Shown one piece after another: positions 20,143 through 22,499 of a DNA stretch of 43,886 nucleotides (its first letter is position 1; each line of letters begins with the position of its first letter). The position numbers were made by a program, and so were the translations under genes. Origin of the DNA: Deltaproteobacteria bacterium (GTDB lineage: Bacteria > UBA10199 > 2-02-FULL-50-16 > JAJFLM01); contig JAJFLM010000202.1 in NCBI GenBank assembly GCA_021772655.1, positions 1-43,886 of the forward strand. The letters run 5' to 3'. The notes beneath the pieces are model-generated. The model was not told where the DNA came from, made no database searches, and worked only from the letters and a program-made list of their open reading frames with translations.

Positions 20143-20637
20143 TTATAATGCCAAGGCTTGTTTAATCGCAGTCAGTAATTCATCGACTCTTTCTACTGAA
20201 CTAGCTTCGGCGTATAGCCTCAGTAAAGGCTCTGTTCCTGACGGCCTCATCAGCACCCAAGAACCATCATTTAAGTTTAATCGACAGCCATCGCTACGAT
20301 CAATATCATTCACGGAAACACCGGATAATTCTGCTACCGAAAAATCACTCAAACGGGCTTTAACAGCATCTGCTTGCTCAGCCGGCAACTTAAAATCATC
20401 ACGCCGGAAATGATGAGCTCCGACTAAGGTCTGCAAATCACTCACCAATTGAGCTAAACTCTTTTTCCGCTGCGACATCATTTCTAGAATCAATAAGCCT
20501 GATAAAATACCATCACGTTCAGGAACATGCTCTACGACAGAGATACCACCTGATTCTTCGCCGCCAATTAATGGATTCAAATCATGAAAGCGGGCACAAA
20601 TATTCTTAAAACCAATCGCAGTACACTCTATTTTCAA
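20143..20637 (-). pseudogene. Phosphohexomutase, C-terminal part after in-frame TGA
   Basis: This segment continues the reading frame of the N-terminal part (20638-21552) without any shift, directly after TGA at 20640-20638. It begins LKIECTAIGFKNI and holds the sugar-binding loop GGEESGG (the family's G-E-E-S/H-G motif) and the phosphate-binding RPSGTEPLLRLYAE of the C-terminal domain. It cannot work as a mutase alone, because the catalytic serine and metal loop are in the other part. A TTG directly follows the TGA, but no Shine-Dalgarno supports separate initiation. Either the gene is a pseudogene, the TGA is read through, or the base is a sequencing or assembly error. Confidence 0.8.
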
Positions 20638-21552
20638 TCAATATTGTTTACATAAAGCATCAATCATCTGAGTTGTGGAGACAGTTTTTACTACGTCTCC
20701 CGTAAGCTCACGATCCTCCACTAAATGCTGTAAAATTAATGCGAAAAGATGATGGCTATCAATAAAGCGGCCCGTTTCATCCATCGTCCCAATACGATCG
20801 GCATCACCATCGGTGGCTAAACCAATATCAATGCCTTCGTGAGCAACGGCTTCCGCTAATTCTTCGAGATTTTTAGCAATGGGCTCCGGTTGAATCCCTT
20901 GAAAAGACGGGTTGCTGTCGCCATGCAATTCTTTAACACCATCTAAAAGCACAGCTTGAAAATACCCACCACCAGAACCATGCATAGCATCTGAAACAAT
21001 ATGCCATCCGGCATTACGAATACTAGTAACATCAACAAAAGATTGTAACTGCTTTACGTAAAGATCCATCGGATCAAATTCATGAAACAAACCCTGCTTT
21101 TGGGCCTGCTTAAGATCTAACTTGAGTGGCGTTTTACCTTGTGCATTATTTTTTTGCAGTTGAGCTTCAATAGGATTCGTATAATCAGATGAAGCGGAAC
21201 TTCCATCTGCTTCTTTAAACTTAATACCATTCCAATCAAAAGGATTATGACTGGCTGTCACCATGACTCCTGCACCCCCATTAAAGGCCTTAGTCATCCA
21301 AGAAATACAGGGAGTCGGACAATACTGTTTGGCAAAATGAACTTCTAATCCATTAGCACATAAGACACTGGCAACCGTCTCAGCAAATTGGCGTGATAAA
21401 AAGCGGCGATCATACCCTAAAAAAATCTTATCGGGTTCTGAACGAGTTTGAAAAACATCGCAAAATGCTTGGATAACATGCTCCACATTTTCAAAAGTGA
21501 AATCACGTGCAATCAATCCACGCCAACCATCTGTCCCAAATTTTATACTCAT
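20638..21552 (-). CDS. Phosphoglucomutase/phosphomannomutase, N-terminal part ending at in-frame TGA
   Basis: The 304-aa product has the alpha-D-phosphohexomutase N-terminus (IKFGTDGWRG), the catalytic phosphoserine loop VMVTASHNP and the metal loop DGDADRIG. It stops at ...DALCKQY followed by TGA. Relatives of this type continue Y-G-L-K/P-x-x-E-T-x-x-G-F-K, and the sequence after the TGA reads L-K-I-E-C-T-A-I-G-F-K in the same frame. The TGA thus sits at an expected glycine (GGA to TGA, one base). The full enzyme would be 469 codons, normal for the family. ATG 21552 overlaps the pdxA stop (ATGA) and has GGGAG 4 nt upstream. The enzyme would interconvert hexose 1- and 6-phosphates; GlmM activity cannot be excluded. 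Confidence 0.85.
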   Translation of the reverse strand: MSIKFGTDGWRGLIARDFTFENVEHVIQAFCDVFQTRSEPDKIFLGYDRRFLSRQFAETVASVLCANGLEVHFAKQYCPTPCISWMTKAFNGGAGVMVTASHNPFDWNGIKFKEADGSSASSDYTNPIEAQLQKNNAQGKTPLKLDLKQAQKQGLFHEFDPMDLYVKQLQSFVDVTSIRNAGWHIVSDAMHGSGGGYFQAVLLDGVKELHGDSNPSFQGIQPEPIAKNLEELAEAVAHEGIDIGLATDGDADRIGTMDETGRFIDSHHLFALILQHLVEDRELTGDVVKTVSTTQMIDALCKQY

Positions 21553-22499
21553 ATTACTCCCACTAATTTAGCCGCCAGCTTCCCCGCCGCAATCATACTT
21601 CCTGGGTTTGCTTTACCTTGCCACGCAATATCAAAAGCAACTCCATGATCCACACTTGTCCTAACAAAAGGTAGCCCCAAGGTCATATTGACCGCTTCAT
21701 CGAAATGCAAGAGCTTAACTGGAATCAGACCTTGATCATGATAAAGGCTAACAACCGCATCAAATTGCCCCTGCACGGCTTGATAAAATACTGTATCTCC
21801 GGGCAAGGGCCCCACAATATTAATCCCGGATTGACGTGCTTTTTTGACAGCCGGAATAATTTTTTTAGCTTCTTCATCGCCAAATAAACCACCCTCACTG
21901 GCATGCGGGTTAAATCCTGCAATGGCTAAACGAGGTTTCTTGAAAAGAAAACGCTGTGACATCACCTCATGAGTCAATTCAATAGCCCGCAACACCCGAA
22001 CAGGCGTCAACAAAGCTGGGACCCGGCTTAAGGGTTCATGGAGGGTAACCAAAACTATTTTAAGTTGTGGCCCCACCATCATTAAATAAGTTTGTGTCTT
22101 GATACCCGCCAATGCCGCGAGTAATTCCGTATGCCCCGGATGAGCACAACCTGCCAGATGAATATGTTCTTTGCAAATCGGTGCTGTCACAATGGCCTGA
22201 CACTCACCTTGTTGTACCTGCCGCACGGCCTCTTCAATATAGGCTAAAGCAACTTCACCACAACGACGCTTAGCAGAACGGCGCGTCACACTTAACTGAG
22301 GCTCTACAACATCTAGATTTTTCGGCAAGGTTTTTTTGAGCAGAACCGCTGCTTCCTCAAGCAAATGACGATGCCCGCAAATCCGCAGATCAGCGACCCG
22401 CTTTAATGGGGCTAAAACCCGCACAATAACCTCAGCACCCACACCGCGTGGGTCACCCATCGTAATCGCTAAACGTGGCTTGCTGGATTGACCTGGCAT
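21549..22499 (-). CDS. pdxA: 4-hydroxythreonine-4-phosphate dehydrogenase
   Basis: The 316-aa protein matches PdxA, which oxidises 4-phosphohydroxy-L-threonine in pyridoxal phosphate synthesis. Visible are the N-terminal ITMGDPRGVGAEV (family G-D-P-A/R-G-I/V-G-x-E), the metal-site region HPGHTELLA, FNPHASEGGLFGDEE and SLYHDQGLIPVK, and the C-terminal VRTSVDHGVAFDIA. It is slightly shorter than usual at the C-terminus and ends in TGA within the start of the mutase gene. It starts 9 nt after the SurA-like gene. The order mfd-PPIase-surA-pdxA is familiar from deltaproteobacterial genomes. Confidence 0.96.
   Translation of the reverse strand: MPGQSSKPRLAITMGDPRGVGAEVIVRVLAPLKRVADLRICGHRHLLEEAAVLLKKTLPKNLDVVEPQLSVTRRSAKRRCGEVALAYIEEAVRQVQQGECQAIVTAPICKEHIHLAGCAHPGHTELLAALAGIKTQTYLMMVGPQLKIVLVTLHEPLSRVPALLTPVRVLRAIELTHEVMSQRFLFKKPRLAIAGFNPHASEGGLFGDEEAKKIIPAVKKARQSGINIVGPLPGDTVFYQAVQGQFDAVVSLYHDQGLIPVKLLHFDEAVNMTLGLPFVRTSVDHGVAFDIAWQGKANPGSMIAAGKLAAKLVGVI

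What the first reader, a model, noticed from the sequence alone, without database searches (positions are those of the whole stretch)
20638..20640. In-frame TGA at an expected glycine of a phosphohexomutase
The N-terminal (catalytic Ser, metal loop) and C-terminal (GEESGG, RPSGTEP) parts join in one frame with a single TGA between Y and LKIE, where relatives have Y-G-L-K. GGA to TGA is one base change. TGA is otherwise a rare stop here: four of about 32 complete genes use it, three of them in overlaps with the next start. Options are a recent nonsense mutation, a sequencing or assembly error, or programmed readthrough. No convincing selenocysteine hairpin is seen, and Sec at this site makes no sense.
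Basis: partly seen in the sequence, partly recalled or inferred. Interest (0 to 1): 0.55.

Follow-up and report, generated by a model that had tools for sequence, protein, structure and literature searches.

The report
One stop codon splitting a sugar-phosphate mutase
A single stop codon interrupts an otherwise intact, widely conserved sugar-phosphate enzyme gene in one draft bacterial genome; it is most likely a one-off mutation or consensus error rather than a new way of reading the genetic code.

Summary
On the minus strand one frame (21552→20143) encodes a four-domain phosphohexomutase, cut after residue 304 by a TGA at 20640-20638. All catalytic motifs on both sides are intact. The stop is private to this assembly: 41 of 45 other genomes of the class have an ortholog at E≤1e-60 and none has an internal stop. 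The site is mostly, not always, glycine (41 of 65 relatives).

Recoding is not supported. Release factor 2 is present with its usual CTTTGAC frameshift site. No UCA-anticodon tRNA, selenocysteine tRNA or SelB was found. TGA ends about a fifth of long frames in a 256 kb sample, in which this is the only gene seen cut by an in-frame stop. There is no hairpin after the TGA. AlphaFold puts residue 305 in a helix-strand turn of domain III; termination would remove half of that domain and all of domain IV.

Best reading: an isolated, recent one-base nonsense change, real or an error of the draft consensus (474 contigs, 7.8% contamination). Without reads I cannot separate these two. Tolerated readthrough, or two pieces made by restart at the adjoining TTG, is possible but has no positive support. 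Low interest.

The parts
20638..21552 (-). N-terminal 304 codons plus TGA: domains I, II and the first part of domain III of a phosphohexomutase (TASHNP catalytic loop, DGDADR metal loop)
20638..20640 (-). in-frame TGA at residue 305, a helix-to-strand turn of domain III
20143..20637 (-). C-terminal 164 codons in the same frame: rest of domain III (GEESGG) and domain IV (RPSGTEP); it begins with a TTG touching the TGA
21549..22499 (-). pdxA-like gene just upstream; its TGA overlaps the mutase ATG. The order mfd, two SurA-like genes, pdxA, mutase is kept in two relatives. Names other than the mutase were given by reading the translations, not by a family scan

Best explanation
It is an isolated one-base nonsense change, private to this assembly, in an otherwise normal and conserved phosphohexomutase gene. 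TGA is an ordinary stop here, so RF2 would end translation at residue 304. The product would lack half of domain III (with the GEESGG sugar-binding loop) and all of domain IV (phosphate-binding RPSGTEP) and would very probably be inactive. The change is either a real recent mutation or variant, or a consensus error of the draft assembly; I give these about equal weight. Shown: position, intact flanks, absence in relatives, absence of TGA-decoding machinery as far as searched. Inferred: inactivity and recency. The roles of the loops are recalled family knowledge.
For: No internal stop in any of the 41 (of 45) other genomes with an ortholog at E≤1e-60; only the own genome shows '1 TGA'. Catalytic motifs are intact on both sides, and near-invariant columns changed are 3/76 before and 3/40 after the stop, within the range of relatives. 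prfB is present at 505 bits with the standard CTTTGAC frameshift site. No UCA tRNA was called in the stretches scanned. TGA ends 27 of 129 long coding frames in the window plus 20 sampled stretches. In 256,182 non-N bases this is the only one of seven same-frame junctions that is not an ordinary gene junction by my reading, at a sensitivity of 368 of 560 simulated breaks. No other copy of the locus is in the bin.
Against: The part after the stop evolves somewhat faster: the window has the lowest C/N identity ratio (0.893) and the longest C-part branch of 30 sequences. This is weak: 6.8% of 500 bootstraps show no deficit, and the window is lowest in only 29%. If real, it points to a less recent loss or to a split protein. 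The gene is nearly universal in the class and no second mutase of its type was found in the bin, so a true loss would be costly; that favours an error or tolerated expression over a fixed loss.
Confidence: 0.9

Rival explanations
1. Readthrough: ribosomes sometimes insert an amino acid at this UGA through a near-cognate tRNA, giving enough full-length enzyme.
For: Both sides keep all motifs, and the residue lies in a turn that accepts many amino acids in relatives.
Against: Not conserved: 0 of 41 class orthologs. No RNA structure after the TGA (z +0.98). The next base is T, which from recall is not a leaky context. No UCA tRNA was called; the only tRNA-Trp drawn with a four-pair anticodon stem lies on a phage-like contig not shown to concern this host.
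Confidence: 0.05
2. Gene fission: two polypeptides, the second restarted at the TTG directly after the TGA, reassemble into an enzyme.
For: The TTG touches the stop and the break lies in a turn between a helix and a strand.
Against: No Shine-Dalgarno-like stretch is visible before the TTG (by eye). The break cuts through domain III rather than between domains. No relative is split.
Confidence: 0.03
3. Genome-wide recoding of TGA to glycine, as in Gracilibacteria and Absconditabacteria.
For: The site is mostly glycine in relatives.
Against: RF2 with its autoregulatory site, TGA used as a stop, no UCA tRNA called, one in-frame TGA in 256 kb.
Confidence: 0.005
4. Selenocysteine at the TGA.
For: None beyond the codon.
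Against: SelB below cut-off (best 188 against 242.25 bits); the tRNA-Sec hit over cut-off is called tRNA-Ser(CGA); no hairpin; no Cys at the site in 65 relatives.
Confidence: 0.005

Closest known systems
Bacterial and archaeal phosphohexomutases near TIGR03990 (Arch_GlmM) and 1tuo
   Same: Four Pfam domains in order, all catalytic motifs, full-length alignment
   Different: Below the curated cut-off of TIGR03990 (315.9 against 439 bits), as is the intact relative L004 (307.2), so the exact substrate is not assigned; cut by a TGA
Pseudogenes or consensus errors with a single nonsense change
   Same: One private in-frame stop in an otherwise intact gene
   Different: No clear decay after the stop
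Genetic code 25 (TGA = Gly; Gracilibacteria, Absconditabacteria; PMC8629427, passages read)
   Same: TGA where relatives often have Gly
   Different: RF2 present, no UCA tRNA called, TGA used as a stop

Membership tests
Phosphohexomutase superfamily | Domains I-IV (PF02878, PF02879, PF02880, PF00408) in order | tested here: met
   on the frame read through the TGA
Phosphohexomutase superfamily | Catalytic Ser loop, metal loop, sugar loop and phosphate loop | tested here: met
   TASHNP, DGDADR, GEESGG, RPSGTEP
Phosphoglucosamine mutase TIGR03990 | Score over the curated cut-off | tested here: not met
   315.9 against 439 bits
Pseudogene | Disabling lesion | tested here: met
Pseudogene | Relaxed constraint after the lesion | tested here: inconclusive
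Pseudogene | Lesion present in the reads and no active product | not testable with these tools
   no reads, no proteomics
Programmed readthrough | Stop kept at the same place in relatives | tested here: not met
   0 of 41
Genetic code 25 | tRNA-Gly(UCA) present, RF2 lost, many in-frame TGA | tested here: not met
Selenoprotein | SelB, tRNA-Sec and a SECIS hairpin | tested here: not met

The most novel reading that the evidence does not exclude
A functional phosphohexomutase is made from an interrupted gene, by tolerated UGA readthrough in a turn that accepts many residues, or as two reassembling pieces with restart at the adjoining TTG.
Probability: 0.07. Interest if true: 0.45.

Novelty: already known. 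Interest (0 to 1): 0.1.

Why it matters
It matters little beyond annotation: a gene caller would report two fragments where relatives have one enzyme. It also shows that a lone TGA at a glycine site should not be taken as recoding when RF2 is present and no UCA tRNA is found. If the protein were made full-length, it would be a clean natural case of tolerated readthrough.

Tried and rejected
Recoding to glycine, selenocysteine and tryptophan suppression were each looked at through the decoding machinery and found without support. A second, intact copy of the locus in the bin was sought and not found. Viral contigs gave no relative of the C-terminal part. A hairpin after the TGA was sought and not found. 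Relaxed constraint downstream was tested and is inconclusive. Two paper searches with all terms required and one on readthrough frequency returned nothing; one led to PMC8629427, of which I read passages only, and listed PMC13092985, of which I saw only the start of the abstract. The other candidate same-frame breaks in the sample look like ordinary neighbouring genes by eye; I did not scan them against families.

Full report
Observation. The frame 21552→20143 on the minus strand reads 304 residues, TGA, 164 residues. The TGA lies at 20640-20638 and is followed at once by TTG. The two parts hit adjoining stretches of the same profiles. Read through, they cover Pfam domains I-IV, with domain III (265-373) spanning the break. 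The motifs TASHNP, DGDADR, GEESGG and RPSGTEP are intact. AlphaFold on an alignment of 30 sequences gave mean pLDDT 94; residue 305 falls between helix 296-304 and strand 308-311.

Relatives. In one search, 59 of 60 genomes searched matched the N-terminal part (41 of 41 of good quality); these counts include distant paralogues. In one search, with the read-through protein and E≤1e-60, 42 of 46 genomes of the class matched including the own one. The 41 others show no internal stop and the own shows '1 TGA'. The four misses (G027, G028, G040, G043) are all under 90% complete. At the site, 65 aligned relatives have Gly 41, Asn 8, Asp 8, Glu 3 and one each of Gln, His, Ser, Lys, Arg (the rows L001, L002, L003 and L068 were left out as paralogue, self, self and a distant archaeal hit). 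Gene order around the mutase (mfd, two SurA-like genes, pdxA, mutase) is kept in G001 and G029, of six relatives' stretches looked at, four of which are short or do not show the neighbours.

Decoding. The genome (window = contig C116; 3.67 Mb, 474 contigs, 93.1% complete, 7.8% contaminated) has RF2 at 505 bits. That gene carries the standard in-frame CTTTGAC frameshift site after a purine-rich AGGGGG, which itself depends on TGA being a stop (recalled). No SelB passes its cut-off. The single tRNA-Sec hit over cut-off is called tRNA-Ser(CGA) by ARAGORN. An RF00005 search found 133 matches. I gave ARAGORN stretches from, by my hand check, every contig on that list; none was called with anticodon UCA, though a few matches, such as the one on C146, were not called as tRNA at all. 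Five tRNA-Trp genes looked at have CCA anticodons. Four are drawn with anticodon stems of at least five pairs; the one on the phage-like contig C263 is drawn with four. Only the one beside the EF-Tu-like gene on C182, with five pairs, is likely to be the host's own.

Sample for other breaks. The window plus 20 stretches give 256,182 bases without N. TGA ends 27 of 129 long coding frames, TAA 74, TAG 28 (the mutase TGA is one of the 27). At the looser threshold seven same-frame junctions of two coding-like frames appear. The mutase is the only one where the second part starts in the middle of a domain; the other six have TAA or TAG and read like neighbouring genes, by eye. Simulated breaks were found in 368 of 560 trials, so about a third of such breaks would be missed, and frameshifts were not looked for.

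Constraint after the stop. The window has the lowest C/N identity ratio and the longest C-part branch of 30, but the bootstrap is weak (6.8% at or above zero) and near-invariant columns are kept about as well as in relatives such as L023 and L028. An old loss is therefore unlikely; a recent change or an error fits best.

Judgement. The evidence supports an isolated nonsense change and not recoding. Real mutation and consensus error cannot be told apart without reads; both are ordinary.

Noticed in passing
L114 (G000:C263:72000-87000): The bin holds a phage-like contig of about 120 kb with an array of 28 tRNA genes; it encodes an HNH endonuclease, a phage RNA-binding protein and an RF-1-domain release-factor-like protein.
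   Followed up: partly
L114:819-894 (G000:C263): The tRNA-Trp(CCA) of that phage-like array is drawn with a four-pair anticodon stem. The abstract of PMC13092985 (start seen in the listing) ties such tRNA-Trp to reading of UGA; whether this one does so is untested.
   Followed up: no
L115:868-948 (G000:C230) and L116:6454-6542 (G000:C251): Two further tRNA-rich contigs carry tRNA-like genes with stop anticodons, TTA and CTA, as called by ARAGORN; possible suppressor tRNAs of phages, or miscalls.
   Followed up: no
L181 around 2439 (G000:C315): The genome's prfB has the classic CTTTGAC +1 frameshift site.
   Followed up: yes
L001:559-1944 (G000:C262): A second phosphohexomutase frame (461 aa), by eye a canonical GlmM after folP and the end of ftsH; not scanned against NCBIfam.
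   Followed up: partly
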